Shown here: in pieces, positions 5,451 to 60,834 of the stretch
How positions within the stretch are numbered: the first letter of the stretch is position 1
Layout: each line of letters begins with the position of its first letter
DNA from: Piezodorus guildinii
Taxonomy: Eukaryota; Arthropoda; Insecta; Hemiptera; Pentatomidae
Reading direction: 5' to 3'
Assembly: GCA_023052935.1 (NCBI GenBank)
Contig: CM041294.1
Coordinates: 17,056,635 to 17,120,634, forward strand
Length of the DNA: 64,000 nt
The notes under the pieces: generated by a model
The model's database searches: none
Seen by the model: the letters and a program-made list of their open reading frames with translations, nothing else
Told to the model about the DNA's origin: nothing
Translations under genes and position numbers: made by a program

Positions 5451-5534
5451 GTCTGATACTTTAAACAGATTTTATGATAGAAATTCGGTTACATTAAAAA
5501 AATCACCTCTACATAGTGTCTACTGTTATATATA

Positions 5535-6733: not shown

Positions 6734-6739
6734 TATATA

Positions 6740-8472: not shown

Positions 8473-8473
8473 C

Positions 8474-8703: not shown

Positions 8704-9626
8704 GCAGGATGGCAGGTGTTCCTCAAGGCAGTATTCTAGGACCCATCCTTTACACAGTTTATACAGCTGATATCCCATCCCATCCTAGCACTTTCCTTTC
8801 TACCTATGCTGATGACACTTGTGTGTTATCAGTCAACAACGATCCAACTATTGCCTCCCAAACTCTCCAATCACACATCAAAGACCTTGAAGTATGGTGT
8901 CAGAATTGGAGAATAAAAACAAATTCCTATAAATCCCACCAAATCACCTTTACTCTTCGTCGTAAACCTATGACATCCTGCCCGACAGTATCCTTCAATA
9001 ATACTCCTCTTGTCTGGGTTGAACAGATTCGATACCTAGGACTGCACCTGGACAAACGTCTCACTTGGAACCCTCATACAAGACTGAAAAGACAAGAAAA
9101 TGCCCGACGTTTTCGACTCTTCAACACTTACTGGACAAACGCTCTAACCTTTCACTTAAGTACAAAAGGCTCATCTACATGACTATCATCAGACCAATAT
9201 GGACTTACGGAGTAGAAATTTGGGGCTCTACTGAACCGTAAAATTCTTCCCGTCTCCAATCCTTGGAATTAAAAATCCTTCGAAAAATCCTCAATGCTCC
9301 TTATTTTGTCACAAATAAACTCATCCATAAAGACCTTAACGTTTCCTATGTTGCTGACTTGGCGCGAACCAGGTACCACTCCTTTCATGACAAACTCAAT
9401 TCCCACCCCAACCAACTAGTTTCAACCCTAGCTTTCTGTTCGATTCCTGATAATCCTCCGAGGCGTCTGAAAAGAAGATGGTCTCAAGACCTACTTGTTT
9501 AAAATAGTTACTGGAGTGCTACCGTTGGGTTGTTCCTCTACAAGTCTTTCTCATTTGATATTTCTTTTAGCATATTTACTTGTTGTAATATAAATTACAG
9601 TAAATTTCAATAAATTAAAAAAAAAA
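8704..9626 (+). mobile_element. A-prime Jockey copy, 5'-truncated, with 3' end and poly(A)
   Basis: Begins inside ORF2 at GVPQGSILGPILYTVYTADIP, runs through STYADDTCVLS (catalytic YADD), ITFTLRRKPMTSCP, RYLGLHLDKRLTWNPHTRLK, a frameshift near 9120, then LNAPYFVTNKLIHKDLN and PPRRLKRRWSQDLLV with a stop at about 9502. A 3' UTR of about 115 bp ends in CAATAAATT and an A tract at 9617-9626. 5' truncation inside the RT is the usual outcome of incomplete target-primed reverse transcription. It lies head-to-tail behind another A-prime scrap. Confidence 0.85.
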
Positions 9627-11400: not shown

Positions 11401-11469
11401 TGTGCTGTAGTGTTCCTAACTTAACGCCATACTCAGAACAACTAAATTCCCTTTACAATGGAAATACTC

Positions 11470-12772
11470 GTACATAACAATGATCCACAGACCGAACAAA
11501 AATACAGACACCCCCTTCGCATATAGACCTATTAGCCTGCTCCCTATTTGTTCAAAAAATTTTGAGAAACTACTCTACATAAGACTTTTTGAGACACTTA
11601 CAAACAGTAACACAATACCCGACCATCAATTTGGATTCCGCACACAACACTCAAACCACTCACCAACTACATAGATTGACTGACTACATTGCATCAGCAC
11701 TAGAGCAGAATTCGTATGCAACAGGAGTATTTCTGAATGTCGCTCAAGCATTTGATCGGGTCTGGCATCACGGGCTTCTCTTCAAACTAAAACTATACTC
11801 TCTCCTACATACTTTCTGATCATTCAGTCTTTTCTTTGCGATAGATTTTTCTCTGTCTGTCATGGCACGGAAATATCTTTAATTAGACCAGTCTTTGCAG
11901 GAGTACCTCAAGGGTCGGTTCTCGCACCACTACTTTACATAATATACAAACACAACATGTTAACCACCTCCGAAACTCTAACAGCGACATACGCAGACGA
12001 TACATCAATCATAACAAAACATCCCTATCCTACGCACGCCTCACAGACGTTACAACACCACCTAACACAATTCCATGACTGGTGCAAACTTTGGAGGAAA
12101 AATTCCAACATATTACTTTCACTCTTCGACATAACACCTGCCCGCCAGTATACCTTGACAACATCCAAATTCCACAGACAGACACCCACAAATATCTGGG
12201 CTTCACATTCGACAGAAGAATGACATGGGACCCACACACCAAGAACAAACAGATAACGCTAAACAAAAGACTAAAACTTTTATACTCACTACTCTCAAGA
12301 CGTTCAAAATTAAAACTTAAAAATAAACTAAACACTCCACTTACCTACTGAAGCCCATTTGGACTTACGCCTAACAGATATACGGGACTGCCAAAAAGAC
12401 ACACATACGCAAATTTTTTTATCCAAAACTCTCAGAACTATTGCAAACTCACCATGGTACATTAGCAACACTACTTTACATACTGACCTTCATATGCCAA
12501 CAGTCAACCGAACAGGGGCATACTAACAATCTAATACGAAGCATGGCCACTAGTAACATGCCGGACAATACTCGCAGAAGACTGAAAAGAAGTTGGATGA
12601 GGAACCTTCTAAGCTAAATCCGTAATAGGAAGCACGCCAGGAAGAGGTGCCGCTGGGCATCTTCTCTCCATCATGCCTACACGCCAAATATCATTCCTTC
12701 ATCATCACATTCGCTGATTGTCAATCATTTATTGACAGATGTGAATGAAAACATTTGAAGATAAAAAAAAAA
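11470..12772 (+). mobile_element. Jockey-type element, family B, 5'-truncated copy
   Basis: Encodes the RT from FAYRPISLLPICSKNFEKLL through PDHQFGFRTQHS, GVFLNVAQAFDRVWHHGLLF, GVPQGSVLAPLLYIIYK, ATYADDTSIITK (catalytic YADD), ITFTLRHNTCPPVYLDN, YLGFTFDRRMTWDPHTKNK, then SPWYISNTTLHTDLHMP and RRRLKRSWMRNLLS with a stop at about 12617. At least five frameshifts or stops break it (near 11655, 11820, 12105, 12345, 12410). A 3' UTR of about 150 bp contains a GCTGATTGTCAATCATTTAT block shared with the other B copies, and ends in an A tract near 12764-12772. The endonuclease and ORF1 are absent. Confidence 0.85.
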
Positions 12773-14407: not shown

Positions 14408-14799
14408 AGTCGTAAATTTTTTTTTTTTTTTAGAAACAATTCTTTATTGAACAATATTAGAAGAAGAAGAAAATAAACTTTATTTACATTTTTACATATT
14501 GACAAAAATTATAAATGATTTCGGATGAGACATCCTTACAATCATCAAATGTTTGGTTCATTTGGTAGTTATAATCTAATTATCTAATCTATAATTAGTG
14601 GTAAAATTAAATTGATATTAACTATGGTAGTAGGAAAAACTAAATAAAAAACCTACATATAAAAAAAAACAAAAAAAACAGATAACACAATTGATAATAT
14701 AAAATTAGAAATTAAGATAAACTAGTTTAAGTTAGCAACACATGTTTAGTTCTTTTATGAGTGTAGCGTTTTAGAGATGCTTTATTATAGTTACCGATT

Positions 14800-17397
14800 T
14801 CCTTTATTAAACTGGTGTTTTACTGAAGTAAGAAGCTGTTTGAGTATGGACAAAATGTTTAATTGTTGGAAGCTGTAAGTCCTGGAGCATAGATGATATT
14901 TTAGTGTAGCGGGGGTAGTTGTTAATTATCCGCATTGAAAGATTTTGAATTCTTTCAAGTTTTTGGTAGTTAGTCAAGCAGGTTGAGCTCCAGACTGGCG
15001 AGGCGTATGTGATTAACGGGCGAATAACTGATTTGTATATTATTAATTTGTTATGAGAGCTCAAATGGGATTTTTTGTTGAAGTATGGGAACATTTTAAA
15101 TATTAGTTTTTTGGCTTTATCGATTTTTCTATTGATATGGTCTGTGAATGTAAGAGATTTGTCTAATGTTATGCCTAGGTACTGTACGGATTTTGACCAA
15201 GGGATGAGAGCTGAATTTATCTTGATTTGGTTTGGTTGATTTGTGGGCGACGTTTAGTGAAAAGAATTGCTTCGGATTTGGTGGGATTAATTTTCAATTT
15301 CCATTTTATGCAATATTTGTGAAATTTTTTAAAATATTGTTGAAGCGATTCACTATTGTATCGATGCGATATGATGAGGTATAAATGCTGTATCATCAGC
15401 GTATAATGACCTCGTCACAAATGGATGGGCTGGTAAGTCAGAAATGAATAAATTAAATAGGATTGGAGATAGGCAAGAGCCTTGAGGAAGACCCGCTGAG
15501 ATGGGGAGGATGTCGGAAGTAGATGTGCCAACTTGAACATAAAACTGTCTATTTGTTAAATAGGAGTGTATGATGTGAATCAGGTATGGTGGGAAGTTGA
15601 ATGAGATTAATTTGTATATGAGCCCGGAGTGCCAAATGGTATCAAATGCTTTTTCGAGGTCTAGAAGGAGCATGCCGGTATGTTTGCGTTCGTTAAAGGC
15701 TTTTGTGATGAAGTCAGTAAGTCGTGCTAATTGGTCAATAGTGCAGTGGCTGATTTCTAAAACTAAATTGTTCATCTATTAGGAGGTTCTTTACTCTAAT
15801 GTGCTTGTTAATTCTTTTGAGAATTAGTTTCTCCAGAATTTTAGAAAGTATATTTAGTAGACTTATAGGTCTGTAGTTCGAAACATTACTATGGTCTTTA
15901 TTCGGTTTTTTTATTACTATAGTTTTGGAAGTTTTCCAGATGATAGGAAAGTAGCTATATCTCAATGTGCAATTAAATATTTAGTTAAAAAATAAATCGA
16001 TTTTCGGCTTAGATTTTTAATAACTAAGGAGGGGATGCTGTCATCACCTGGGGCTTTTTTTGGTTTCAATTCTTTAATGATATTTGCGATTTCTTTCGGA
16101 GAGATGGGAGAGAAATTAACAATAAAAGGTGATTTTAAATAATCGCGGACGGATTTTAGAATTTTACGGTTGTGGTGATTTGAACCAAGGAGAGAGGTGA
16201 TTGAATGAGTTGTCTGGAAATGCTTGACTAATAGCTGAGCTTTTTCCCTGTCCAGATATGCGTAGCCGTCGTTATTTTTTAAAGGTGGAATTTTCGGGGA
16301 CTGCTTAGTTAAATTTTTGTGAATTTTCCACATGTTATTGTCCCTGGCTGACAAGATTTCAAAACCGTAGCCCAGTTTTCGTTTTTCCAGTCATGGAGAC
16401 GTTTTTTAATGTAACTGTTTAGTTTATTATAGACTAATTTGGTTTTTGGAGTTTTGTTACGCTGGAAATATCTTTTTAATCTATTTTTTAAATATATTAA
16501 TGCTCTGAGTCGATATGGTAAATTATTATGACAATACGGGTGGTAATATTGTTGTGGAATGGATAAGGACATGGATAATTTTATATGTTCATAAAAAGCG
16601 ATTAGTGTGGTATCGATTTCTTCGAATTATTTATGGTTGGGTTTATATTGATTCGGGAATCTAGCTCTTTCCTGAACTTTGGCCAGTCAGCGTCTTTGAG
16701 CGAAAATTTGAGTATTTTGGAAATTTTTGGTAAAGGAGATTGTATACGAAAAATCACGGGATTGTGGTCCGAATTTAAACATGGTAAAGCAATAAGAGGT
16801 GATAAGTTGTAAATATTTTTTGTAAGAGCCAAATCGATGATGCTAGGTTTGTAATTACGTTGAGTCGGTATATGGGTTGGTTCAGACGGACTGTGTAATT
16901 GAATATGGTTTTTTACGATAAAATTTAGAATTAATTTACCGTTTTTATTTGTTCTGTTACAGTTCCACTGTGTGGTGTTTGGCGTTTAGATCGCCAAAAA
17001 TGATAACTTGTTTATTTAAATTAAATAGTTTACTAATATCTGGGATATTTATTTTATTTGGTGGGATATATACAGATATTACAGTGGTTGACTTGTTGTT
17101 AATAATTGTATTAATAGCGACGGCTTCGGTAAACATTAAGTCAGGAACGTGTATAAAATGATGCTGAATATCGGACCGCACTAAAAGCATGACCCCCCCT
17201 CCAGCTCTACTACGGTCACGTCTGTAAATGACATATCCCGGAAGAGAGAAACGATCAGTTTCAGAAAGACGTGTTTCACAAACAGAGACTAAATGGGGTT
17301 GATTATGATTTAAAAATAATTTAAATTCTACATCGTTTCCGCGAATAGTTTGTGCGTTCCACATCATAAGTTTAATTTTACTATTGGCACTAGTCAT
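14800..17397 (-). pseudogene. Element C ORF2: APE endonuclease and reverse transcriptase, broken
   Basis: Starts MTSANSKIKLMMWNAQTIRG. Endonuclease signatures follow: VCETRLSETD, SVYIPPNK, FGDLNAKH, then after a frameshift near 16960 SDHNPVIF. The RT follows in several frames: LKPKKAPGDDSIPS near 16070, NYRPISLLNILSKILEKL near 15870, LLLDLEKAFDTIWHSGLIYK near 15640, GLPQGSCLSPILFNLF near 15490 and SLYADDTAFIP (catalytic YADD) near 15400. After a gap the C-terminal block KLIIYKSVIRPLITYASPVW and LERIQNLSMRIINNYPRY ends at about 14800. At least five frame changes. In an intact form it would nick the target and copy the RNA there. Confidence 0.85.
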
Positions 17398-17649
17398 TAG
17401 AATTTTCCGAATGAGTTGTAGCCCCTATTGTAATGTAAACAAGAAAGTATGTTGTAAAAGAGTACGGGATATAAAGATCGCTGATAATTATTATTGTGAA
17501 ATTGAAGCTAAGGCTAAAGTTGTTCGTACAGCAGCTTATACAATAGGAATTTAGCAAGACACTGTGTATAAACAACTTTACATCGCTAACACTCATAAGA
17601 GATTTGAACAAATAAATATTACGAATATTTTTGCATAATAGAATGACCA

Positions 17650-18787
17650 TTAATCCAACATAGAAAGTAATCCTTCTACGAGAATAAAGATTTTTGACAT
17701 GCCATCTTCGGCGCTTTTTAGTTGTAATAAAATTTTTTTAAAGTTTGTAATTAATTTACTTACATTAAATAAATTGAATATATTTTTTATCTCTTTAAAA
17801 CAATCAGACATGGTAGGTTCGTTAGAGGTGTTGTTGGCGGTTTTCGGAGAGAATGTGTTTTGAGGCCACGGAGATTTCGGGGTTGGTAGAACTGGAAATT
17901 CTTGGTCGGTTTGTTTAAATGTTTTTCGTGGGATAGCTCGAAGTGCTGGATTTTTTTTGCTTAACTGTAATTCGAGATTTCTTTGATATTTCGTACATTC
18001 CGTGGAATTTGAAAAATGTTCATCGGAGCAATTACAACATTTGGGTTTGAATCCGTCGATTAATGTATTTGGGCAGTCCTTTGAAAGATGGTCTTCGGCA
18101 CATTTCAGACATTTTGGATTTTTAAAGCAATTACGTGCCACGTGGTTAAATTCTTGACACTTGTAACATAGAGTTAAAGTTTTGTTGGATCTATATTTTT
18201 TCCCATTTTATTACAATGTTACAACTATAGCGAATGTTATTTAATTTGGCTAGCTGTTCTTTATTGTCTAAAATTACTATTAATATCGGAAGCTTTATAG
18301 ACCCGTTGGCAGATTTTTTCTCCATTTGGTAGATTTTATGAATGGCTAAACCTTGATTTTGTAGGTCAGTCGAAATTTCTTCAATGGGGAACTGAGGAGG
18401 CATACCTTTTAAAATAATTTTAGGTTTCGTTTCACTTTTTGGAGTGAACGTGTGAAAGCCGAGATTGAGATCTTTTAAGAAATTTTTTACAAGTTCAAAG
18501 TCTTCACTATTTTGAACATAGATTGTGGTTTTGTTCATATTATATTTTATATTTAAGTCTTTCACTTCTAATTTTAAATTGTTAATAGCACCACTGATGT
18601 TGTTGTAAGATGAATTTACTATTATGGGGGGATATTGACTTTTGCTCTGTTTTTGACTTATTATGTTTTTTAAGATTTCGGTATCTTCTTCATCTAAATC
18701 GGAAAGTATATCATAACTATTGGAGGTTTCAATGTTGAACTCACCTCTTTTACGTTTTGTTGACGTGCTGGCTGTCTGTTCGGCCAT
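17650..18787 (-). pseudogene. Element C ORF1: gag-like zinc-knuckle protein with one frameshift
   Basis: The likely start is MAEQTASTSTKRKRGE at 18787. An in-frame Met upstream at 18874 adds only a hydrophobic leader that looks like 5' UTR. Acidic NSYDILSDLDEEDTEILKN precedes a PRE-C2HC-like region, and two or three CCHC-type knuckles follow: CYKCQEFNHVARNC, CLKCAEDHLSKDC and a CCNC...C block. The product would bind element RNA. The only break seen is near 18195, where a run of six A shifts the frame after IKWEK. One base fewer would keep a single frame. ORF1 ends at 17650, and about 250 bp of non-coding spacer separates it from ORF2. Confidence 0.8.
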
Positions 18788-19223
18788 AGTTCGTGCTTGG
18801 CCCCCGACCGGGGCACTCTTGTTTGTATTTGTTTGATTGGTGAACAATTTGAGTAACAAACAAATGAGAAACACAAAATAAAAGATTTTTCGAAAGAAAA
18901 AAGAATGACTGTAATAAAATCACTGACTAAAGGAGAGACTGATTAGACCACTGAACTGTACCCTACGGCTGCTAGACGTGGACTTGAACAATATTACAAT
19001 CTGTCCAATTTAGGACATTTTTAATAGGGATAAAGTACAACATTCATACTGCATTCACACGATATATACAAAAAATAAATTTATATAATAATAATACAAT
19101 ATAAATAAATACAAAACAAAATCAATAAAATATATACAAAAGTCACTCATACCTATATACAATTCACAAGCATACAGCACGTGAGTGGAGAATCTAGCCA
19201 ATGCTAGAACTCCAATATACATT

Positions 19224-21905
19224 TTACAAGAGGTCTCGAGGCCACTGCCGTTTCAACCTTCTAGGAGGATGGTAAGGATGTGTGGAGCTGGATAAGGATT
19301 GAGCTAGGGGATTAGGGTGATGGATAAGGTTTTGATGGAATTTAGAGAATTTTAATGGTATAAGGTTTAAAATAAATGGAATATTTAGGTCGCGGTGTAA
19401 GGTATGGTTGGATACATAATAAGGAGCATTAACTATTGTTCGGAGGACTTTTGATTGGAAGGATTGAATGCGTTTGATGTTAGAAAATTTAGCTGTCCCC
19501 CACAGTTCAAGTCCGTAGGTCCAGATAGGTTTCAGTACTGTCTTGTATATTAGCAGTTTGTTCTCGATAGATAATTTAGAATTTCTGTTCAGTAGTCTGT
19601 ATAATTGTCCAAATCGTCGATTAAGTTCTTGTCGTTTAAGTCTAGTATGCGGGTTCCAAGTTATTCTTTTGTCCAGAAGGAAGCCAAGATACCGGACTGT
19701 GTCGGAGAAAGGAAGCGGAACGGAGTTAAAGAGAACTGGAGGGCAGGATTGTCTTCGAAGGGTAAAGGTGACATGTCTGCATTTGGATTGATTTACTTTG
19801 ATTCTCCAGTGTTACACCAGTCTTCAATTTGAGAAAGGTGTGTTTGGAGGCCTGTAGATGCAATTTCGGGATCTAAGTGAGAGGATAGGATAGCTGTGTC
19901 ATCAGCGTACGTTGCTAGGAAGGTATTAGGGCAAAGATGAATATCAGCCGTGTATATATGTAGAGGATAGGACCAAGGACACTACCCTGAGGAACACCGG
20001 ATTCGACTGGATAATAATTGGAATATTCTGCACCACAACGAACTCGGAAGGAGCGGTTTGATAGATAGGATCGGAGGACTAGGTATAAGGATAGAGGTAA
20101 ATGGTTTTTGAGCTTAAAGAGCAATCCCGGGTGCCACACCCGGTCAAATGCTTGCGTTATGTCCAGAAATGCACCCGAGCAGTACTCCTTGTTCTCAAGG
20201 GCAGAGGAAATATGGTCAACGACTCGGAGCCCTTGCTGAACGGTTGAATGTTGGGAACGGAATCCAAACTGATGGGAAGGAATAGTGTGGGATTCTAATA
20301 ACGGTAATATTCGTTTGAGGAGGATTTTTTCAAAGATTTTTGAAAGGATTGGGAGTAGGCTGATAGGTCTATATGATGTCGTAGTGTAGGAGGTTTACCT
20401 GGTTTTAGGAAGAGAATTATTGTGGAATGTTTCCATAAGAGAGGAAAATGAGTAATGCGTAGAATGGAGTTGTAAATATATGTAAGAAATATAACGGCTT
20501 TAGATGGAAGCTGTCTGAGAATCTGAGGAGTGAGGAGATCGTATCCAGGAGATTTACGGAGTGCAAGTTTTCGGAGAAGATACTTGACCTCAGAGGGATT
20601 AACTGCTTTAGGAGGTAATGAAAGCGGGATTGGAGACTGAAGGAACTGTTCCACTACTGAAGTGTGGTTTGGATTGGATTCTGGATGAGGTGTGAAGACT
20701 TGGGAAACGTATTTGGCAAGTTCCTCGGCTTTGTCTTCATCAGACGCAGCCCAGGAAACATTACTACGACGGAGGGGATGGGAAATATGGTGGGATTTTA
20801 GAATTTTCTTGGTGACATTCCACAGGGAATTGTCACAAGCCGAAAGAGAAGAAAGGAAGGAACTAAAGGATTGGGAACGGAAGGTCGCCAACTCCCTCTT
20901 TAATTGTCTACAATAAAAGTTATAGGAGCGGCGATCTGTGGGGTGACGGGTGCGTTGCCATAAGGATCTGGATCGGCGTTTGGTGCGGATGAGGTCTATG
21001 AGGTGTTGTGGTAAATGATTTTGGTTATGACTTATCTGGGAGTGCTTGGGAGAGGAGGCAGTCCAAACAGCTTGTTGAATAGCGATGGTGAAGGAGTTTA
21101 CGGCATCGTCAAGGTCATCTGGAGTTTTGAGTTTCACTCTGAGGTCAATATCACTGGTCAGGATTTGGCGAAAAAGGTCTCAGTTTACTGGTCCTCTGAT
21201 AAATGACGGTGGGGTGGGTTTAGGAATAGGAATTAGGGATACTTTAAGGAGCAATGGACTATGGTCAGAGGACAGTTCATCAAGGCGAGCCACCGACATG
21301 TTTAGGGAGCCTAATCCGCTGTGAATGAAGAAGTCAAGGATGTCAGGATTACGGTTAGGATCAGTTGGCCAGTAGGTAGGGGAGTCAGGAGGCAGGAGGT
21401 TGAAACGTCTAGAGCTGAGTGCAGACTGTAAATTCCGCCCACGACAATTCGTGGATCTGCAACCCCATTGTTGGTTCTTAGCATTCATGTCTGCACCCAG
21501 AATGAAGTGGTTTCCTAAGGCATTGAGGAAGGATTCGAATAGAATGTTGGAGATGGAATGTTTAGGAGGGCAGTACGCTGATGCGAGGGTGATCGGAAAA
21601 GAAAAAGTCTTGATTACTATGGCGGTGCATTGTAGGAAATCATAGGAGGGAACTGGGAGTATATGGTGGGAGAGGGACTGGTGCACAATGACAGCAGTAC
21701 CGGCATGGGCTTTTCCGTCTGGGTGGTCTGTACGGTATGTTACGTATTGAGGTATTTTAAAGAACTGTTTAGTGGTTAGTCTAGTTTCAGTACTTAGTGC
21801 TACATCAACGTTTTTGTCTTGCAATAAAGCTGTAAGTTCGTCAGTATGATTTCTAACACCATTCGCATTCCAAAGGAGAATGGACAAGGAGTTAGGTGTA
21901 GTCAT
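19224..21905 (-). pseudogene. A2 ORF2: endonuclease and reverse transcriptase, broken
   Basis: The start at 21905 overlaps nothing and directly follows the ORF1 stop (21906-21908). The endonuclease is intact for 241 codons: LLWNANGVRNHTDE, STETRL, SAYCPPKHS, LGADMNAKNQQWG, LDELSSDHSPLL. A TGG-to-TGA change at about 21180, just after FIRGPVN, truncates it. The RT continues from 21137 (NSFTIAIQQAVW, SRSLWQRTRHPTDRRSYNF, LALRKSPGYDLLTPQIL) to a frameshift near 20380, then HPGLLFKLKNHLP, GVPQGSVLGPILY and further broken pieces to RQWPRDLL with the stop at 19224. Best compared with A1 ORF2. Confidence 0.9.
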
Positions 21906-22912
21906 TTAAGGATTTTTTAAGGAAGGGATTAAATTTGATAGGAGATTAGTAAGTAGTGATATTAGCGGCATAACAAGAGATTTGATTTCAGTGATGAAGG
22001 ATGTCATCAAACTTGTAAGGTCTGTGACATTTGATGGAGGAGGAATATGAGAAATTTGATGCGGATGAGGTTTTTGAGGGTTGGGTAAATTTTGAGGAAT
22101 AGGTGTTGTGGAAGGGGTTCAGGATTTTGAGGTATGCGTTGTTCCGGCAGGGCCTCTTTGTTCTGGTTCCCACCTCCAAGTAGATGGGCAAATGTTAATT
22201 GGAATCAATTGTTTTTGAAGGTTGTCTTCTGCTTCTGATCGGTTCAGCTGTTTCCCTCCAGATTCTGAGGTTTTTGGTATCTGCTTTTGAGGTTCTTGTA
22301 GATTCGACATCCCTTGTAGTTAGCCGGGTGGTCCTCTAGGCACAGGGCACATACAGCGGGTGTTGATCTTAATCGTGTACATTCTTCTGATTTATGTTGC
22401 TCACCGCATTTCACACAGCGTGGTGTGTGGTGGCAGTAAGTTCTCGTATGACCATATGCCTGACAATATGGCACTGAACTATTTCTTTCTTAGTGTAAGG
22501 TTTCTCAACTCTTACACTAGTATAGTACAACCTATTGAGGTCGTAAATTTTTTCAACTCCTGCTGTTGGTTCCAAGTCCACGAAGAATAGAGGCAGTGGA
22601 ATTTTATCTTTCAGGACATTGGTCACTTGCCGCACTTAATAGCCTATCTCCGTCAGTTCTTCTTTGATAGCTGTAACTGTGTCGAAGGGTGTAGGTTTTT
22701 AATTACAACCCTTAAAGCTCTCTCCTGGCGCAACTGATAGGTATGAAAATCAGCTTTGGTCTCAGTCAGATATTTCACTATTTTTCTGTAGCTTTCGGCG
22801 GTAGTCGGGGATATTTTAGTATCACTGGTTCTACTTATACAAGAATAACTATTAGGATCAGTTACTTTGTTTAAATGCGCACACATCAGTTGAAAATTTT
22901 TAATATTTTTAA

Positions 22913-25095
22913 AACAATAGATATTAAACCATTTTTAAAATGTCCCCTTCCGACTCTTACACCAGGTCCTGTTGATTGGAAACGCTTTCGAAAAATATTA
23001 GACAAATCAATATCGCTTAACACTATCCTCTGAACTCCAGAAGATGTTGATAATGCAGTGCAACTATTGACAAATGCTATCCAACAAGCGGCTTGGAATT
23101 CTTCTTGCCCCCAAAAACATGTTAATGAGATAAACCAAAGAAATTCTGTCATTCCAGAATCTATTAGATTTCTTATACAAGAGAAAAGAAAAGCGCGTAA
23201 AAAGTGGCAGAGAACTCGTTATCCCTCTGATAAGTATATTTTTCGTCAACTTTCAGTGCAAGTACATGACGAACTGAAGCGTTTTAAAACGGAAAATTTT
23301 AATAACCTCCTAACAAGTTTAAATAACAATGATAGATCGATATGGCGGATTACAAAGCGTTTATTGGGTCACCGCGTTGTATCACACCCCGTTCGGAACC
23401 CTAATAATTCGTGGGCTAAATCTGATGCCGAAAAAGCGGAAATGTTTTCATGTCACTTGGAAAATACCTTTGCGCCTCACAGTGACTTGCAAGATTCACT
23501 CAGTGCAAGATTAGTTGAGCAACAATTAGAAACCCCTTTGCAGATGACTCTACCGCCGAAAGCTTTTCATCCTAACGAAACATATACTATTATACAAGGT
23601 TCACCTAACCATAAATCTCCCGGTTATGACCTAATCACAAATTACGTTTAAAAAATTTATCAAAAAAGGTCAATCTTTTTAACTAACATTTTCAATTCTA
23701 TCATAAAAACTACCCATTTTCCAGCTTTATGGAAGTACTCAATAGTAATTATGTTACCTAAGCCCAATAAACCAACTGACGATCCAAATTCCTACCGCCC
23801 AATCAGTCTTTTACCATCTTTATCCAAAATATTCGAAAAACTTCTGTTTCGACGTCTAAATTCAATTAATTCTTTTGATATTATTCCAAATTTCCAGTAT
23901 GGTTTTAAACAAAATCATTCTACAATACAACAGTGTTACCGATTGGTTGATTATATTTCTTTTTCGTTGGAATCAAAACATTACTGTCCGGGAGTGTTTT
24001 TGGATATGAGTCAGGCCTTTGACAGAATATGGCACGATGGTTTGCTCGCTAAGTTAAAAACATTTCTTAGTCCAACATATTATTTAATTTTACATTCGTA
24101 CTTAAAAGATAGGTTTTTCCGTGTAAGAGTAGGTTCTGAGTTCTCTAATATTAAACAAATAAAAGCAGGTGTACCTCAAGGCAGTGTTTTAGGTCCAACA
24201 CTTTTTAATATATATTGCTCTGACATCCCACAGCATCCAGAAACACTTATAGCAACCTTTGCTGACGATTCAGCTATCCTGACATCCAACAAAGATGCCT
24301 CTAAGGCTTCTAAGGCACTCCAAGAACATCTGGACGACATAGCTTGCTGGGCAAAAACATGGAAAATAAAAATGAATCAATCAAAGAGCCTGTTCGTCAC
24401 ATTTTCTTTAAAACATAACTCCTGCCCCCAGGTCTTTTACGATACTATTCCTATGCCAGTTTCTGACACAGTACGTTACTTAGGACTTTACCTTGACAAA
24501 CGACTAACATGGGCATACCACCTTAAACGAAAAAGAAAAGAACTAAATCAACGATATGGACTTCTTTCAAGGTTACTAGACAAACATTCAAAATTATCAT
24601 TGACGAACAAATTAACTATTTATAAAGTACTAATAAAACCCATTTGGACTTATGGCATTGAGTTATGGGGAACAGCAAAAAAGTCAAACATCAAAATTAT
24701 TCATTATTTCAATCAAAATTACTTAGGAAAATTATAAATGCCCCTTTTTACGTATCTAACGAGACACTACATACTGACCTAGACATTCCATTCGTCATTG
24801 CAACTGCCACTGATCGCTACAATAAATTTCATGACAGACTGACCCTAAATTCAAACCCGCTGACTCAAAACCTATCAACTGCCACAAACCCATATAATCT
24901 GCCCAGAAGACTATCGAGGCGCTGGCCAAGAGACCTGAAATATTGAAAGTTATTAGTTTTTTTTTTAATCTATGTAGTTTGTTACATCTGTTGTTAGCAT
25001 ATTTGCTTATTGCAAAAAAAAAAAGCAGATAGCAAATACAATTGTAATGCCAAAAAAACTTCTATGAATAAATAAATAAATAAAAAAATAAAATA
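22913..25095 (+). mobile_element. Jockey-type element D, 5'-truncated, inserted in A2 ORF1
   Basis: Bounded by the 11-bp direct repeat AATATTTTTAA (22902-22912 and 25096-25106), which rejoins the A2 ORF1 sequence when one copy is removed. The insert begins at the end of the endonuclease domain and continues through the RT to a stop at 24946, a 3' UTR and a tail of AATA/AAATAAA units. Orientation is opposite to A2. The protein is related to A and B but clearly distinct. Confidence 0.9.
22930..24946 (+). pseudogene. Element D ORF2 remainder: RT
   Basis: Reads PGPVDWKRFRKILDKSISLN, a stop near 23035, NAIQQAAWNSSCPQKH, KARKKWQRTRYPSDKY, HKSPGYDLITN with a frameshift near 23645, then one open stretch of 328 codons from 23751: PNSYRPISLLPSLSKIFEKL, NFQYGFKQNHSTIQQCYRLV, GVFLDMSQAFDRIWHDGLLA, AGVPQGSVLGPTLFNIYC, ATFADDSAILTS (catalytic FADD), YLGLYLDKRLTWAYHLK. 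A frameshift near 24700 leads to INAPFYVSNETLHTDLDIPF and RRLSRRWPRDLKY. The RT core is whole between 23751 and 24737, so it is one of the better-kept RTs in the window. Confidence 0.9.
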
Positions 25096-25749
25096 AATAT
25101 TTTTAACAAATATTGGTGGAGGTAGTGGTTCCCTGGGTATAGGAGAAGATTCCATGGTTTCTTTTTCATTTTGGAGGATCTGAAATGGATTCGGTGTAAA
25201 AAACGGCGATTCATCAGTTAATCCTTGTGATGATGTGCTAGGCTGTGGTTCAGATCCTAAAGAGGTAGCTGAAGCGGTCGCTGGTGGAATCATTTTTTTA
25301 TTATTTTCACGGCGAGGTCTCTGTTTTGTAGGAGACGAGTTTGAACCTGCAGATCTAGATCTTTTACTTGTAGCTTTTGAGGACATAACTTGATGGAAAT
25401 ATCTCATTGATTAGAAGAAAAAAAAATAACAATAAATAAATAATGAGATGAGAATGAGAAGGAAAGATAATAAAAGAAAGATAACTTAAAGAAAAGCAAG
25501 CCCGAGCTTGCCGAGCTAGCGGCGATCAGCTGATCAGTGACCCTCCTTTCACTTTTCGCGATTCTACAAAGTAAATTATAACTTTGCTTACCGATATTTC
25601 TCCAATATTCACTGCTGTGGTTTTCTTGAAGTCTAGTGATGTTTTCCAGACTGAACTCAAGCGAATTCCTACTGAAAAGAGCAAAAATCTGAGAGACGAA
25701 GTAACGTATGACTGTTATCATCGAGCGCATCAGCTGTTCTAGTCGTAAA

Positions 25750-26840
25750 ATTAATTTCTATACAGTGATATTGTTATAAATTAATTTTCTATCATATAAT
25801 AACCTTTAGTATGTTTTGTTTTTAATATTTGTTTATGTTACTTTTTTTTTTTACATATTTCTTGTCATTTTACAAATAATTTAGTAAAATAATTTTATTC
25901 CAATTATATATATATTGTAATGTATTGAGGATACTGAGGGGAGTTCATAATTAAATAATTTTAATATTAAACAATAAGAGATAGAGAAACCTTTGTCGGC
26001 AAATCATCAAAAGGCGTTTACCTCCATGAGACCCCCAGCAATATGTACCTCGGGAAACTTCTTCGACACTAGGACAAAGGACCACCGGCATGGGGCACTT
26101 TCCAGATCAGTCCCGCCCGAGGTGACGACGATGAGGAGAAGATTGGAAAGAGGCAGTCCTCAAGAAGAGGGAGTCGGGTTCCATCTACAAGAAGAGGAGG
26201 TGGCCGTCGGGGTTCTGAGAGCAGCTGGAGGATGATGCCGAGAAAGGGGACTTAAGACTGATTTCACCTTTGCCAGCCGGTTAAGTGTTTCAAAGGTATA
26301 TCGTTATTTGTAATATTGTATGGCAAATGTAGTAGTGAAAATGTCCCTCAGTATTCTCAATCAAAGTTCTAGGCAATGTGTTAATATAATGCATATGTGT
26401 AAATTAATAATTATAATAACGTATTAATCGAATCTTGTTTACTTTAATCTTACCCTGCATGCCACCTCTTGGATTGGTAAACACGATACCTTTGGAAAGG
26501 AGATCTAATGGTATCATTAAATATAGTTTATATATTGACTAAATATAGTAAGTAAGCTAGTTTTTGAAGCTACCGCTTCCTTAGAAAAGCAGCCGGTTAT
26601 AAACATAGCAATATATATATGAACCTAAAACTTCTACAATAACCTGAATGATATTCCTCAAAAGTCGTTTATAGTGGATAGATAAACAGACAGTTTTTTA
26701 TTTTTTTAAATTATTTCTGTTTATTTCAATTATGAAAATCATATGAAAACGAAATCATAATATTTTGTGGCCTTCACTCTGTCATTATAATTTCCTCTTC
26801 AAATCCGAAATTATGTTTTATGGAATCTTCGTATCTTATC
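25750..26840. other. AT-rich flanks around a GC-richer unassigned island
   Basis: Between about 25990 and 26280 the composition turns GC-rich and purine-rich. The 80-codon frame at 25993-26235 reads like chance, with runs of Glu and Val but no domain. No matching copy was found in the window. Flanks are AT-rich. Confidence 0.35.
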
Positions 26841-26846
26841 TATATA

Positions 26847-27691
26847 TTGGGTTGTTTCACATGAAATGTCCGTTTTTATAGTTTATGAAATATGTCAAGG
26901 ATTTTGCAAGTCTCTGTTGTTTTCTTCCGAATGTTTACATATTTAAAGTAAAGAGTTACTAATTCTCTACCTTTGTATTATAAACATTAGCTTCCCAATC
27001 AATTACCCACTTTTTAGCATACCTCCAAATATGAACATGGAAACAGGCGATTTTCGAATAATATTTTTGTACGAGTTTAAACTGGGCCAATCATTAGCTG
27101 AGGCCGCTAGAAATATTTGCAAGGCGTTTGCGGAAGGGAGTGTTAATGAACGGACCATTTGTCGTTGGTTTGCTAAGTTTAGAGCTGGGGATACCGACTT
27201 GGAAAACTTGCCCCGAGGAAGACCTCGGTCCGTAATAGACAATGATGTCCTCAAACATACAGTAGAAGAAAACCCCTACCAAACAGTTAAAGGACTCTCA
27301 GCACACCTAGTGCATCTACCGTTCCCAGATATTTAAAGTGTATTGGGAAAGTAAAAAAGCTCGATACATGGGTACCTCATGATCCCACTGAGCGGCAGCA
27401 AGACCCTATGTTTCAAAACATACCGTGCAAAAATTGAAAGAACTGAGCTACGAAGTTCTTTCACTCCCACTTTTTGAAAATTATGATCAAGTGAAAAGTG
27501 CGTTTTCAGATTTTGTTTCACTTCAAAGCTCAGATTTTTTCAGTTCGGGGGTAAAATAGTTGATGTCACGTTGGGAAAAATGTGTAGAAAAAGAAGGTAA
27601 ATACTTCGAATAAAATTATCTTGTTTTCATATCGTATTTTTATTAATAATCCTTTACCTTGAAAACGGACATATCATGTGACACAACCCAA
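26847..27691 (+). mobile_element. mariner deletion derivative, 845 bp
   Basis: Terminal inverted repeats TTGGGTTGTTTCACATGAAA (left) and its counterpart ending ACACAACCCAA (right), flanked by TA on both sides. It contains the transposase N-terminus and a piece of the C-terminus and shares the internal deletion junction of the copies at 47566 and 49740. About 80 bp shorter than they are because of further loss near 27325 and 27470. Confidence 0.92.
27031..27600 (+). pseudogene. mariner transposase remnant
   Basis: The frame opens MNMETGDFRIIFLYEFKLG, then the paired helix-turn-helix region EAARNICKAFAEGSVNERTI and RWFAKFRAGDTDLENLPRGR. It is broken at about 27325 and again at the shared deletion after the WVPHD.TERQ region. 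The C-terminal FSSGV..L..RWEKCVEKEG tail is still legible near 27530-27600. The first two catalytic Asp residues are absent because the middle is deleted, and here the third (PDLSPTDYHLF region) is lost too. Non-functional. Confidence 0.9.
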
Positions 27692-27699
27692 TAGTATTT

Positions 27700-28450
27700 A
27701 TTATAGAGAAATTGTTTATAGAAGTAAATGGTTATTAACAAAAATTACTTCCGTTCAGAATTAAAAATTTCGTTTCTCCAGATGATTAAGTAAGCGAGTA
27801 ATATATTTCTAAGGACATTATGCAAATGACCTGACAGAGATCGAGGAAATAGCTTATAATTTGCTGATGTATAAAGTTGAGGCGGTGGATTTATTTCAGT
27901 CAGCAGAAAAAAAAAGTTTAAAGATTTAAATTCTGTAATTGAGGGGATGCAGCTTAAGAGCCCGAGGCCTACCGATAAGCCCCAAGACATAAATCATTTT
28001 GGTGAGGGGGGAGGACTCCCAGCAGTCCCTATAGGAAAAACATTTTTCCAAACTCAGTCTAGTACTTCATCTTGTTGCTAAGCCTGTTGGTCATTGTTTC
28101 TCACAGTCTATATATAAATGAGCTAAATAGTCAATACTGAAGGAAATATTAACAAATAAAATATTATTTGAACTTTAAATTAAAATCATAAGTAGTAATA
28201 TTGGTGGTTCTGGTGCTCCAAGAATTTTCATCCCATTTAAAAAATGGTTCTAATCAGAATCAGCCGAATTATGGACCCGTAATAAAAATTCCTGTTTTAA
28301 ATATATAGCAGTAATTAAAAAAAAAATCATATTATACCAAAAGAAAGATCATTGTATAGATTATTAAGTGCTGGGTATAGGGAAATATTGTAAGAAAAAA
28401 CAGTCATATGAAACTGAAATCGCATATTTAGAGCTGGGTTAGGCAGATGT
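27700..28450. other. AT-rich stretch, no gene seen
   Basis: No recognisable coding or repeat signal. A slightly GC-richer patch near 27940-28030 has no match in the window. Confidence 0.4.
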
Positions 28451-28455
28451 TACTA

Positions 28456-29733
28456 TTTTTACTTTCACTTAATATGTATAGTAAGGAAAGTATTCCGATC
28501 GTGAAAATTTTCTAATTCCAGTTTTCAACGGAAATACACGTTTTAGGGTCCCCTGAGTCTAAAAAATCAAGTCCCGCAAAAAGGTCTGTGTTTGTGTGTG
28601 TGTAAAAAAGACAAGTATACGCCCGAGACGTGACAAAATTTTTTTCATCAAAATGAGCTTACCAGAAGAGGTACTTTATACCATACATTTTGCACCTTTT
28701 TTCGATTTTCTCGAAAACGGTTCTGACGATTTTGATTAAACTCGCTATATCGATGTAACATTTAATGAGCTTTAATATCAAGTAGGTTTTATTTGGATAA
28801 AAATTGTCTGACAGGGCCTAAATGCCGATATTTTAAATTTTCTTCCCCTAAAGTACCTTTAATTTTGTAGATTCAATAAAAATAACTAGATTATCTTGTT
28901 AACGCTGATAAAAAACAGGTAAATATATAAATTGAATAAATTCGATACCCAACTAAAGGAGAAAACAGAAAATATATTTTTTTATTCGTTAATTATCAAG
29001 CCGATTTGCAAAAGAAATTCTTGGATATTTTTTTAAAACACTTTATTTATTCCAGTATCGCGACGTTTCAGACATTTTTAAAAAAATTATGACGACGCTG
29101 GTGAAAAGCGGTAAAATTAAAAGATAACTGAGATGGATATGCATGGTAGGTGACAAAATTATTAAAAATAATTTTTTATATGTTGTTGTAATTGAATTGT
29201 TGGAAAAATATATAAATGCAATAAGATTTTAATTGATTTACAGAAGCTTGAAAATGGCCCTAGAGGCTGAAACGTCGCGATACTGGAATAAATAAAGTGT
29301 TTTAAAAAAATATCCAAGAATTTCTTTTGCAAATCGGCCTGATAATTAACGAACAAATATTAGAACAAAAGAAAAATGACGACAATGATGAAAAAAATAT
29401 ATTTTTTTAACGCAATTTTTCGTTTTTGAATATAAGAGCAGTAATATACATGTATGATATACTGTTGGAAAGCTAATGATTTTTGAAAAAATATTATCTT
29501 ATACACAAGCTTTGAAAAGTTAATAGAGAGCGATGAAATGAACATAAAACTAACTGATTATTTTAGATAATAATATAATAGATTTTTTAATGAAACACAA
29601 GTTTCTATAGAAATTTAATTTAATTAATTCCTTAATAGTTTCACGTATTTTTATCAACTGTATTTGAAAATTCTTTCATTGATTTTAAAAATGGAGGTAA
29701 ATGAAAGTCGTGTGTTGCCCGCACCAGATTTTT
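28456..29733 (-). mobile_element. Helentron-like element, copy H3, with a MITE inside
   Basis: Minus-orientation copy of the H family: 3' end ACTTTCACTTAATATGTATA near 28461, hairpin region slightly degraded, TG microsatellite near 28590-28605, and 5' end GTCGTGTGTTGCCCGCACCA at 29708-29725. It is about 380 bp longer than H1 because a separate element with 87-bp inverted repeats sits at 28985-29353. Confidence 0.8.
28985..29353. mobile_element. MITE with 87-bp terminal inverted repeats
   Basis: The left arm 28985-29071 and right arm 29267-29353 are reverse complements with about one mismatch. Outer ends read TTCGTTAATTATCAA and the inner ends CGCGACGTTTCAG. The 195-bp centre has no coding capacity. 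It interrupts the H3 copy. I cannot assign a superfamily because no unambiguous target duplication could be read in the AT-rich flanks. Confidence 0.88.
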
Positions 29734-44623: not shown

Positions 44624-44792
44624 CTGACTCAATACACACAAACATAAGGCATAGCAAAAATTACTCACTTAAAAAATCCTGCGATTTTTTTAATAAAAAA
44701 TTTCACGACTTTACGTACAAAACTTTAGATACTTAATTACACTTACCAACTGTGGGCGAACACATAAGGAGTCTTTCATACTATTTCTTTTT

Positions 44793-47560: not shown

Positions 47561-47565
47561 TTATA

Positions 47566-54673: not shown

Positions 54674-54988
54674 ATGGCGCTCGATGATAACAGTCATACG
54701 TTACATCGTCTCTCAGATTTTTGCTTTTTTCAGTAGGAATTCGCTAGAATTCAGTCTGGAGAACATCACTAGACCTCAGGAATATTACGGCAGTGAATAT
54801 TGGAGAAGTTTCGGTAAGCAAAGTTATAATTTACTTTGTACAATCACGAAAAAGTGAAAGAAGGGTCACTGATCAGCTGATTGCCGCTAGCTCGGCAAGC
54901 TAGGGCTTGCTTTTCTTTTAATTATCTTTCTTTTATCTTTAATTCTTATCTCATTATTTATTTATTATTATTATTATTTTCTTAATCA

Positions 54989-56305
54989 ATGAGATATTTT
55001 CATCAAGTCATGTCCTCAAAGTCCGCAAGTAAAAGATCTAGATCTGCAGGTTCGAACTCGTCTCCCACAAAACAGAGACCCCGCCGTGAACAAAATAAAA
55101 AAATGATTCCACCAGCGACCGCGTCAGCTACCTCATTAGGATCTGAACCACAGCCCAGCACATCATCACAAGAAATAACTGATGAATCTCCGTTTTTTAC
55201 ACCGAATCCATTTCAGATCCTCCAAAATGAAAAAGAAACCATAGAATCTTCTCCTATACCCAGAGAACCACTACCTCCACCAATATTTGTTAAAAATATT
55301 AAAAATTTTAAACTGATGTGTGCGCATTTAAACAAAGTAACAGATCCTAATAGTTATTATTGTATAAGTAGAACCAATGATACTAAAATATCTCCGACTA
55401 CTGCTGAAACCTACAGAAAGATTGTAAAATATCTGACTGAGACCAAAGCTGACTTTCATACTTATCAGCTGCGCCAAGAGAGAGCATTAAGGGTCGTAAT
55501 CAGAAACCTACATTCCTCAACACCCGTTGAAGCAATCAAAGAAGAACTGACAGAATTAGGATTCCAAGTGAGGCAAGTCACCAACGTTCTAAAAGATAAA
55601 AGTCCACTGCCTCTATTCTTCGTGGACTTGGAACCATCAGCAGGAGTCGAAAAAATCTATGACCTCAGTAGACTGTACTATACCCGTGTAAAAGTTGAAA
55701 AACCTTACACAAAGAAAGAAATAGTCCAGTGCCATAACTGTCAGGCATATGGTCATACCAAAAGTTATTGCCATCACATACCACGCTGTGTGAAATGCGG
55801 TGAACAGCATAAAACAGAAGAATGTACAAGATCAAGATCAACACCCGCTGTATGTGCTCTGTGCCTCAAGGACCACCCGGCTAACTACAAGGGATGTGAA
55901 ATCTACAAGAAACTCAGAACCAGATACCAAAAACCTCAGGATCAGAATGAAACAGCTGTACCAACCAGAAGCAGAAGAGAACCATCTAAACTTGTAAATT
56001 CTAACGTGTCATTTGCCCACTTGCTTGGAGGTGGTAACCAGAATCATGAAGTCGAGGCACTGCCGGAACAACATTTTCCTCAACATTCTCAATCTATTGT
56101 ACAAGAATCTATCCCTCAAAGTTTACCTAATCTTCAAAAAACTCCTCAACATCAAATTTCTCATATCCCTCCACCATCAAACGTCACAGATCTTACCAGT
56201 CTAATGACATCGTTCATCTCCGAAATCAAATCTCTTGTTATGCCGCTTATATCACTCCTTACAAATCTAGTATCGAATCTAATCCCTGCCTTAAAAAATC
56301 CTTAA
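54989..56305 (+). CDS. A1 ORF1: gag-like zinc-knuckle nucleocapsid protein, intact
   Basis: 438 codons. Residues 1-100 are Ser/Pro-rich and basic (SASKRSRSAGSNSSP, PSTSSQEITDESPFF), which is likely disordered. About 165-246 is the PRE-C2HC-type region (ERALRVVIRNLHSSTPVEAI, FFVDLEPSAGVEKIYDLSRL). Three knuckles follow: C248-C251-H256-C261, C267-C270-H274-C279, and C289-C292 with D/H and C303, the Jockey pattern. The tail ends hydrophobic (LTSLMTSFISEIKSLVMPLI). It would package element RNA and aid its return to the nucleus. A second Met at residue 8 (MSSKS) is an alternative start. The stop TAA abuts the ORF2 ATG (56306). Confidence 0.92.
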   Translation: MRYFHQVMSSKSASKRSRSAGSNSSPTKQRPRREQNKKMIPPATASATSLGSEPQPSTSSQEITDESPFFTPNPFQILQNEKETIESSPIPREPLPPPIFVKNIKNFKLMCAHLNKVTDPNSYYCISRTNDTKISPTTAETYRKIVKYLTETKADFHTYQLRQERALRVVIRNLHSSTPVEAIKEELTELGFQVRQVTNVLKDKSPLPLFFVDLEPSAGVEKIYDLSRLYYTRVKVEKPYTKKEIVQCHNCQAYGHTKSYCHHIPRCVKCGEQHKTEECTRSRSTPAVCALCLKDHPANYKGCEIYKKLRTRYQKPQDQNETAVPTRSRREPSKLVNSNVSFAHLLGGGNQNHEVEALPEQHFPQHSQSIVQESIPQSLPNLQKTPQHQISHIPPPSNVTDLTSLMTSFISEIKSLVMPLISLLTNLVSNLIPALKNP

Positions 56306-58988
56306 ATGACTTCACCTACTCCTTATCCATTCTCCTTTGGAATGCGAATGGTGTTAGAAATCATACTGACGAACTGACAGCGTTGTTGCAAGACAAAACA
56401 ATCGATGTTGCACTTATAACTGAAACAAGACTAACGGCTAAACAGTACTTCAAAATACCGCAATACATGACATACCGTACTGACCACCCAGACGGTAAAG
56501 CCCATGCCGGTTCTGCTATCATTGTCCACCAATCCCTCTCTCATCATTTACTCCCACTTCCCACCTATGATTTCCTACAAGCCACAGCCATAGTAATCAA
56601 GACTTTTTCCTTTCCGGTAACCCTCACATCTGCATATTGCCCTCCTAAACATTCCATTTTTAATTCTGAATTTGTATCCTTCCTGGATTCCTTAGGAAAT
56701 CGTTTCATTCTGGGTGCAGACTTAAACGCCAAGCATCAGCAGTGGGGTTCCAGAACCACGAATTCTCGGGGACGAAATTTGCTGTCTGCACTCAACTCCC
56801 GAAATTTCAATATCCTGCCTCCTGACTCCCCTACCTACTGGCCAACCGATCCTAACCGCAATCCTGACATCCTCGACTTCTTTATCCACAGCGGATTAGG
56901 CTCTCTCAACTTGTCTTTAACTCGCCTTGATGAACTATCCTCAGACCATAGTCCACTGATCCTAAAAGTATCTCTCACTCCAATTCCAAAACCCATTCCA
57001 CCATCATTCATCCGAGGCCCTGTCAACTGGAACCTTTTCCGCCAAATCCTGACCGATAATATTGACCTCAGAGTAACCCTCAAAACCCAAGATGACCTAG
57101 ATAATTCCGTCTATTCCTTTACCACCGCCATCCAACAAGCTGTCTGGACTGCTTCCTCTCCTAAACACTCCAATATAAATCCAGACCAAAATCATTTTCC
57201 ACAACCTATTATAGACCTTATCCACACCAAACGCCGAGCAAGATCATTATGGCAGCGCACCCGACACCCAACAGATCGCCGCTCCTATAACTTCTATTGT
57301 AGACAATTGAAGAGGGAGTTGGCGAACTTCCGTTCCCAGTCCTTCAATTCCTACCTCTCCTCTCTATCAGCTCGTGATAATTCCCTGTGGAATGTCACGA
57401 AAAAGATCCTAAAATACCATCATGTTTCCCATCCTCTCCGACGTGGTGATGACTCCTGGCTCCGTCTGATGAAGATAAAGCCGAGGAATTCGCCACACAC
57501 CTCTCCAAAGTTTTCACTCCTCACCCGGAATCCCACATCAATCACACCGCAAAAGTGCAAGACTTTCTTATGTCACCGATTCCACTTTCCCTACCTCCTA
57601 AAGCTATTAATCCCTCTGAGGTCAAATATCTTCTCCAAAAACTGACTTTCCGCAAATCTCCTGGACACGATCTCCTTACTCCCCAGATCCTCCGACAACT
57701 TCCGCAGAAAGCTATTATATTCCTTACTTATATTTACAACTGCATCCTCCGCACCACCTATTTTCCTCTGTTATGGAAACATTCCACCATCATCCTTTTT
57801 TTAAAACCAGGTAAACCTTCCAACAACACTTCATCCTACAGGCCTATTAGTCTACTCCCCATCCTCTCAAAAATCTTCGAAAGGCTTCTTCTTAAACGTA
57901 TCCTACCCATATTAGAATCTCAAAATCTTCCTTCCCATCAGTTTGGATTCCGTCCTCAGCATTCCACAGTTCAACAGGGGCTCCGAGTTGTAGACCATAT
58001 TTCCTCAGCTCTTGAATGCAAAGAGTATTGTTCTGGTGCGTTTCTGGACATTGCGCAAGCTTTTGACCGGGTATGGCACACTGGATTACTCTTCAAGCTG
58101 AAAACCCATTTACCTCAGTCTCTATACCTTATTCTCCGATCCTATCTCTCGAACCGTTCCTTCCGAGTTCGCTGTGGTGAAGAATTTTCTAACCTTTATC
58201 CCGTTGAGGCCGGTGTTCCTCAAGGCAGCGTCTTGGGACCCATCCTCTACATCCTTTACACTGCTGATATTCCTACACATCCTGATACCTTTCTGGCAAC
58301 TTTTGCAGACGACACCGCCATCCTGTCATCCAGTTCCAATCCTGAAACAGCATCCTTAAACCTTCAGAGACACCTTTTCCTTATCGAACACTGGTGTAAT
58401 AACTGGCGTGTAAAGGTGAACGAAGCCAAATGTAAACACATAACCTTTACTCTTAGACGAAAATCCTGTCCGCCAGTTTATTTCAACTCATTACCGATTC
58501 CTCTCTCAGATACAGTCCGGTATCTTGGCTTACTGTTAGACAAAAGATTGACTTGGAACCCACATACAAGACTTAAAAGACAAGAACTCAACCGACGATT
58601 CGGACAGTTATACCGACTACTCAACAGAAAATCCGAACTTACAGTTGACAACAAATTATTAATCTACAAGACAATACTGAAGCCCATCTGGACCTACGGA
58701 CTTGAACTGTGGGGGACAGCTAAACGTTCTAACATCAAACGCATTCAATCCTTTCAATCCAAAGTCCTCCGTACAATAGTAAATGCTCCTTATTATGTCT
58801 CCAATTATACCTTGCACCACGACCTTAATGTTCCATTTATTTCAGACCTAATTCCATCCAAATTTTCCAAATTCCACCAGAACCTCATTCATCATCCTAA
58901 TCCTTTAGCTCAATCCCTATCCAGCTCCACTCATCCATACAACCCACCTAGAAGGTTGAAACGGCAGTGGCCCCGCGACCTTTTGTAA
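56306..58988 (+). pseudogene. A1 ORF2: APE-type endonuclease plus reverse transcriptase, two single-base breaks
   Basis: The start follows the ORF1 stop without spacing. Compared with A2, one base is missing within the first 13 or so nucleotides and another near 57461 (just before RLMKIKPRN), so the 420-codon and 477-codon open parts lie in different frames. Endonuclease: WNANGVR, ITETRLTAKQYFKIPQY, SAYCPPKHS, LGADLNAKHQQWGS, DELSSDHSPLIL. RT: YRPISLLPILSKIFERLL, HQFGFRPQHSTVQQGLRV, AFLDIAQAFDRVWHTGLLF (motif A), GVPQGSVLGPILYILYTADI, TFADDTAILSS (catalytic FADD), YLGLLLDKRLTWNPHTRLK, then RRLKRQWPRDLL at the end. Length and order are those of Jockey ORF2. The breaks could be mutation or sequencing error. 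Confidence 0.92.
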
Positions 58989-59269
58989 ATATATTGGAGT
59001 TCTAGCACTGGCTAGATTCTCCACTCAATGTGATGTATGTATGAGTGTGTGTATGTGTATATAGGTATAAGTGAATTATTGACTTTTGTATTGATTCATT
59101 ATTGTGTATATATTTTATTGTAATTTTATGTTGTGTGAATATTGTATGAATGTAGTATGTTTGATGTCATTCAGCACTACTATTAATGTCCAAATTGGGA
59201 CAGATTGTAAAATTTTCTCAATAAAAATTGTTATTGTTCTAAAAAAAAAAAAAAATTAATTAGATGAAT

Positions 59270-60830: not shown

Positions 60831-60834
60831 TTTT

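What the first reader, a model, noticed from the sequence alone, without database searches (positions are those of the whole stretch)
14408..25749. Three-layer retrotransposon nest with every junction readable
Seen in sequence: A2 (minus) is bounded by AGTCGTAAA repeats. C sits in its 3' UTR between perfect TTGAACAATATTA copies. D sits in its ORF1 between AATATTTTTAA copies, in opposite orientation. Removing C, D and one duplication copy each leaves about 4.59 kb, matching the independent A1 copy (4.58 kb). This fixes the relative order A2 first, then C and D.
Basis: seen in the sequence. Interest (0 to 1): 0.75.

Follow-up and report, generated by a model that had tools for sequence, protein, structure and literature searches.

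The report
Jockey-like retrotransposons nested in another
An old copy of an insect jumping gene was hit twice by other jumping genes of the same broad kind, leaving clean scars that show which came first; this is an ordinary, well-preserved case of a common process.

Summary
A2 (14417-25740, minus) is a decayed jockey-type non-LTR retrotransposon flanked by AGTCGTAAA. C (14460-18983, minus) lies in its 3' UTR between perfect 13-bp copies; D (22913-25095, plus, 5'-truncated) lies in its ORF1 between perfect 11-bp copies. A2's three pieces are co-linear with A1 (54677-59253); without C, D and one repeat copy each A2 is 4593 bp, A1 4577 bp. Three ordinary target-primed insertions explain this. 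Corrections: the nest is two levels deep, not three (C and D sit side by side), and nesting does not order C against D. Addition: A1 and A2 are not simple sister copies. They differ at 48 of 715 sites before A1 55393 but 613 of 3777 after it (0 of 300 block shuffles as strong), the break lying 93 bp past D's site; this suggests an exchanged 5' segment, unproven with two copies. C, younger by nesting, is no less decayed than A2 (difference not significant). The kind of structure is well known; interest is low.

The parts
14417..25740 (-). A2: full-length but decayed jockey-type non-LTR retrotransposon, interrupted by C and D; own sequence is 25740-25107, 22912-18984 and 14459-14417 (the last two pieces each end in one duplication copy of an insert)
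   Evidence: Piecewise alignment to A1; Exo_endo_phos and RVT_1 Pfam matches in two of its ORF pieces; 10 frameshifts or stops in 3561 coding bases compared
14408..14416 (.). Target-site duplication of A2, left copy (AGTCGTAAA)
25741..25749 (.). Target-site duplication of A2, right copy
14460..18983 (-). C: 4524-bp jockey-type element with ORF1 (zinc knuckle), endonuclease and RT, ending in (TTC)4 and not poly(A); same orientation as A2, in the A2 3' UTR about 30 bp from its end
   Evidence: zf-CCHC, Exo_endo_phos, RVT_1 in separate pieces; some listed RT relatives bear the names jockey, X-element and BS; blastn finds no second copy in the window
14447..14459 (.). Target-site duplication of C, left copy (TTGAACAATATTA)
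18984..18996 (.). Target-site duplication of C, right copy
22913..25095 (+). D: 2183-bp 5'-truncated jockey-type element (starts after the endonuclease domain, RT to 3' end, A-rich AATA tail); opposite to A2, in its ORF1
   Evidence: RVT_1 E 3.3e-40; RT 57% identical to A1's over 358 aa; matches A1's endonuclease ORF only from residue 196 on; AATA repeat
22902..22912 (.). Target-site duplication of D, left copy (AATATTTTTAA)
25096..25106 (.). Target-site duplication of D, right copy
54677..59253 (+). A1: uninterrupted relative of A2 used as yardstick; ORF1 with PRE_C2HC, endonuclease and RT with one frameshift, poly(A); duplication AATTAATTAGATG at 54664-54676 and 59254-59266

Best explanation
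Three separate target-primed reverse-transcription events. First a jockey-type element A2 inserted in minus orientation and duplicated 9 bp. Later a nearly full-length element C inserted into A2's 3' UTR (13-bp duplication) and a 5'-truncated element D inserted into A2's ORF1 in the opposite orientation (11-bp duplication). The order A2 before C and before D is shown by the junctions; the mechanism (TPRT) is inferred from duplications, 3' tails, 5' truncation and the endonuclease-RT genes; the order of C and D is open. A1 and A2 descend from two subfamilies whose 5' ~0.7 kb is more closely related than the rest, probably through an exchange (template switch or conversion) before D inserted (inferred, separate from the 0.96 given for the nest itself).
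For: Perfect duplications at all three pairs of ends. Breakpoints placed independently by alignment to A1, overlapping by 11 bp at D, with A1 holding the unoccupied 11-bp site at 55290-55300. Length 4593 against 4577 bp. Endonuclease and RT domains in A1, A2 and C, RT in D. 3' tails: poly(A) in A1 and A2, AATA repeats in D, (TTC)4 in C. Mosaic: change point at A1 55393, 48 of 715 against 613 of 3777 mismatches, 0 of 300 block shuffles as strong; third codon positions 15 of 134 differing at the start of ORF1 against 70 of 298 in the rest of ORF1 (p 0.003) and 170 of 469 in the second part of ORF2 (p 5e-9); the same ORF1 part is less conserved than the middle of ORF1 in 7 of 7 database relatives compared.
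Against: C, which must be younger than A2, shows 6-7 frameshifts or stops in 509-647 aligned codons (four references), A2 3 in 642 (one reference) and D 3-4 in 582-656 (four references); this runs against a simple age reading, though the differences are not significant (C against A2 p 0.34, against D p 0.22). The mosaic rests on two copies, is partly gradual, and has a second, weaker break further on (A1 56658, 13.4 to 17.6%); a constrained internal promoter could also keep the 5' UTR similar. Other copies in the genome could not be examined.
Confidence: 0.96

Rival explanations
1. The nest is an assembly artefact that joined unrelated retrotransposon fragments.
For: The region is repeat-rich and neither reads nor the rest of the assembly could be examined.
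Against: Perfect duplications of three different sequences sit where alignment to A1 places the breaks; a chimeric join would not create them.
Confidence: 0.02
2. C or D was moved into A2 by recombination or gene conversion and not by its own insertion.
For: A1 and A2 lie in the same window in opposite orientation and their divergence is mosaic.
Against: Each insert is bounded by its own 3' tail and a perfect target duplication; for D the same 11 bp stand once, unoccupied, in A1.
Confidence: 0.02
3. The closer similarity of A1 and A2 over the first 0.7 kb is functional constraint (internal promoter and ORF1 start), not exchange.
For: 5' UTRs of such elements hold promoters (recalled). The 5' UTR differs at 24 of 310 sites against 31 of 212 in the 3' UTR. 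Third-position divergence rises in steps along the element, 11, 24, 30, 36%, not in one clean step.
Against: Third codon positions of ORF1's start also differ little (15 of 134), and at protein level this part is less conserved than the middle of ORF1 and about as conserved as its end in the 7 relatives compared.
Confidence: 0.35

Closest known systems
Nested retroposon insertions (transpositions in transpositions, TinT: PMC3014933, abstract seen; TRANScendence: PMC5657132, abstract seen; a nested insertion in mouse agouti: PMC6677723, start of abstract in a listing)
   Same: Element-in-element insertions, used to order past activity.
   Different: The two methods work from many nests across a genome; here one host element with two inserts.
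Jockey-clade non-LTR retrotransposons (names seen in databases: mobile element jockey, X-element, BS)
   Same: ORF1 with PRE_C2HC or CCHC motif, AP endonuclease plus RT, target duplications of varying length, 5' truncation.
   Different: C ends in a TTC repeat and not poly(A); A, C and D are separate families (A1 RT 57% identical to D, 29% to C).

Membership tests
APE-type (jockey-like) non-LTR retrotransposon: A1/A2 | AP endonuclease domain upstream of RT | tested here: met
   Exo_endo_phos and Exo_endo_phos_2, then RVT_1, in A1; Exo_endo_phos and RVT_1 in separate pieces of A2
APE-type (jockey-like) non-LTR retrotransposon: A1/A2 | ORF1 with PRE_C2HC zinc-finger region | tested here: met
   PF07530 E 4.5e-12 in A1 ORF1; A2's disrupted ORF1 aligns to it; the one A2 ORF1 piece scanned alone (50 aa) gave no such match
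APE-type (jockey-like) non-LTR retrotransposon: A1/A2 | No RNase H domain after RT | tested here: met
   At E 0.001 only RVT_1 is reported in A1's 477-aa RT ORF, which ends the element's coding part
Jockey clade proper | RT groups with the jockey clade in a tree with curated references | not tested
   No curated reference set at hand; assignment rests on names that sources gave to some relatives and on domain layout
APE-type non-LTR retrotransposon: C | Endonuclease plus RT, CCHC ORF1 | tested here: met
   zf-CCHC (22.0 bits, cut-off 20.8), Exo_endo_phos, Exo_endo_phos_2 and RVT_1 in separate pieces
APE-type non-LTR retrotransposon: D | Endonuclease domain | tested here: inconclusive
   D is 5'-truncated and begins after the endonuclease; its RT is 57% identical to A1's
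Nested TPRT insertion | Target-site duplication at both ends of host and inserts | tested here: met
   9, 13 and 11 bp, all perfect

The most novel reading that the evidence does not exclude
A1 and A2 are chimeric relatives: a 5' UTR plus ORF1-start module of about 0.7 kb was passed between subfamilies of one jockey-type lineage, a 5' module swap that renewed the promoter end of the element.
Probability: 0.5. Interest if true: 0.25.

Novelty: new member of a known kind. Interest (0 to 1): 0.12.

Why it matters
It is a clean worked example: junctions, tails and an unoccupied reference site fix the order of insertions without dating assumptions. It also warns that nested order (A2 before C) and decay counts need not agree. 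It opens no new question about mechanism.

Tried and rejected
Scans of bacterial/archaeal genome contigs and of viral contigs with A1's RT confirmed no relative (11 and 2 stretches matched a pattern, none held up). Rfam gave no match at the gathering thresholds. Three paper searches on nested elements returned no paper for all or three of four of the terms. Other searches found TinT and TRANScendence. The 12 papers listed of 93 on modular exchange and the 12 listed of 1,621 on Hemiptera gave no title that I followed up; so I make no claim that 5' exchange in this lineage is unreported.

Rejected: a third nesting level. C and D lie apart in A2; blastn finds no second copy of C in the window, and for D only four weak partial hits of 35-246 columns to other RT fragments (run with C and D ends a few bases inside or outside the final boundaries). 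Rejected: an assembly chimera (perfect duplications). NCBIfam matches (group II RT, Drt2) lie far below their cut-offs and are only generic RT similarity; solved structures matched are LINE-1 ORF2p, R2 and similar, also generic.

Full report
Observation. The junctions described are all present at the stated positions. Target duplications are AGTCGTAAA at 14408-14416 and 25741-25749 (A2), TTGAACAATATTA at 14447-14459 and 18984-18996 (C), and AATATTTTTAA at 22902-22912 and 25096-25106 (D). The 13-mer occurs nowhere else in the window and was not found in any of 100 shuffles. The 9-mer and 11-mer are not rare in so AT-rich a window (shuffle means 0.56 and 0.91), so their weight comes from lying at independently placed breakpoints. 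The third copy of the 11-mer, on the minus strand at 55290-55300, is the unoccupied equivalent of D's site in A1.

A2's pieces align co-linearly to A1: A1 54677-55300 with 25728-25096 (91.2%), A1 55290-59214 with 22912-18990 (82.1%), overlapping by 11 bp at D. A 48-base stretch holding the last block (with 3 bases of C and 2 of A2's duplication) aligns to A1 59205-59257 with 44 identities, 3 mismatches and 7 gaps. A2 without C, D and one copy of each of their duplications is 4593 bp; A1 is 4577 bp. A2 carries 12 more bases at its 5' end than A1 (compare), so A1 may be slightly 5'-truncated or A2 slightly extended; I cannot tell which.

What the elements are. A1 has an ORF1 with PRE_C2HC, then endonuclease and RT, whose reading frame is broken by one frameshift. 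A2 has the same layout with 10 frameshifts or stops in 3561 coding bases compared (ORF1 and endonuclease against A1's, RT against P0001; about 330 bases between these stretches were not counted). C is 4524 bp, with zinc knuckle, endonuclease and RT in several broken pieces and a (TTC)4 3' end. D is 2183 bp, begins after the endonuclease domain and ends in AATA repeats. RTs: A1 and D are 57% identical, A1 and C 29%.

Host. The best of the 120 listed relatives of A1's RT (5297 in all at E 0.001) is 83% identical over 85% of the query and filed under 'Pantoea sp. Taur'; the next named ones are the bug Ranatra chinensis and aphids. A reverse-transcriptase-like protein of Pantoea sp. Taur, perhaps another record, stands in a table of PMC7643828, a commentary on database contamination (one passage seen). 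The window therefore probably comes from a true bug or another hemipteran (inference); a link of 'Taur' to the stink-bug genus Taurocerus is my guess (one search shows only that the genus exists, in Pentatomidae).

Mechanism. Target duplications of 9-13 bp, 3' tails, one 5'-truncated insert and encoded endonuclease-RT fit target-primed reverse transcription (established knowledge of this class, recalled). Shown: A2 is older than C and D. Not shown: C against D. Depth is two levels, not three.

Decay. Over RT stretches I counted frameshifts plus stops: A1 1 in 653 aligned codons (P0003), 0 in 405 (P0001) and 1 in 812 (P0033); A2 3 in 642 (P0003) and 3 in 402 (P0001); D 3 in 652, 3 in 582, 3 in 654 and 4 in 656 (P0003, P0007, P0008, P0033); C 6 in 509, 7 in 647, 7 in 602 and 6 in 647 (P0121, P0122, P0124, P0138). 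C is younger than A2 yet no less decayed; taking C as 7 in 647, the difference is not significant against A2 (p 0.34) or D (p 0.22), and against A1 p is 0.04. The references differ between elements and are only 36-57% identical in most cases, so the counts are rough. The reading that C followed A2 closely and D came later is therefore only a lean.

Mosaic relation of A1 and A2. Mismatches are 48 of 715 columns up to A1 55393 and 613 of 3777 after it; 0 of 300 block shuffles gave as strong a break; a second, weaker step lies near A1 56658 (13.4 to 17.6%). The main break lies 93 bp beyond D's site, so it is not caused by D. Third codon positions differ at 15 of 134 (ORF1 start), 70 of 298 (rest of ORF1), 106 of 356 and 170 of 469 (two parts of ORF2), so the change is partly gradual. 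At protein level A2 matches A1 at 126 of 135, 145 of 161 and 100 of 130 ungapped codons in three parts of ORF1. In 7 database relatives compared (chosen from the top of the 120 listed, 1490 in all) the first part is less conserved than the middle in 7 of 7 and about as conserved as the last part. An exchanged 5' segment is the likelier reading to me, constraint the main rival. Second codon positions differ at only 6-7% (27 of 436, 26 of 355, 29 of 475), so most of the A1-A2 divergence arose while both lineages were under selection, and neutral decay since insertion is at most about that much for the two copies together (inference).

Verdict. A correct and careful observation of an ordinary phenomenon. 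[quoted passage not shown]

Noticed in passing
5525-6741, with 5723-6620 inside: A repeat with copies at 26836-27701, 47561-48502 and 49738-50665 is interrupted by another repeat of about 0.9 kb that also occurs at 28450-29733, 36357-37196 and 44784-45604: a second nest. By eye the outer repeat looks like a mariner (recalled transposase motif, not tested).
   Followed up: partly
28981-29357: A 377-bp stretch with 91-bp inverted ends (98% alike) interrupts a copy of the 0.9-kb repeat at 28450-29733: a third nest, MITE-like.
   Followed up: partly
54458-54669: Imperfect 212-bp palindrome (83% alike) running into A1's left duplication, holding the sequence CCCGAAACGTC; recalled as reminiscent of Penelope-like elements, not tested.
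   Followed up: no
14460-14471: C ends in four TTC repeats and not in poly(A) or A-rich repeats.
   Followed up: no
8456-9496, 11423-12611, 38418-39143, 60824-61890, 62212-62669: Further RT fragments related to A1 (tblastn): the window is dense in decayed jockey-like elements.
   Followed up: no
25729-25740: A2 has 12 bases at its 5' end that A1 lacks, directly inside the target duplication.
   Followed up: no
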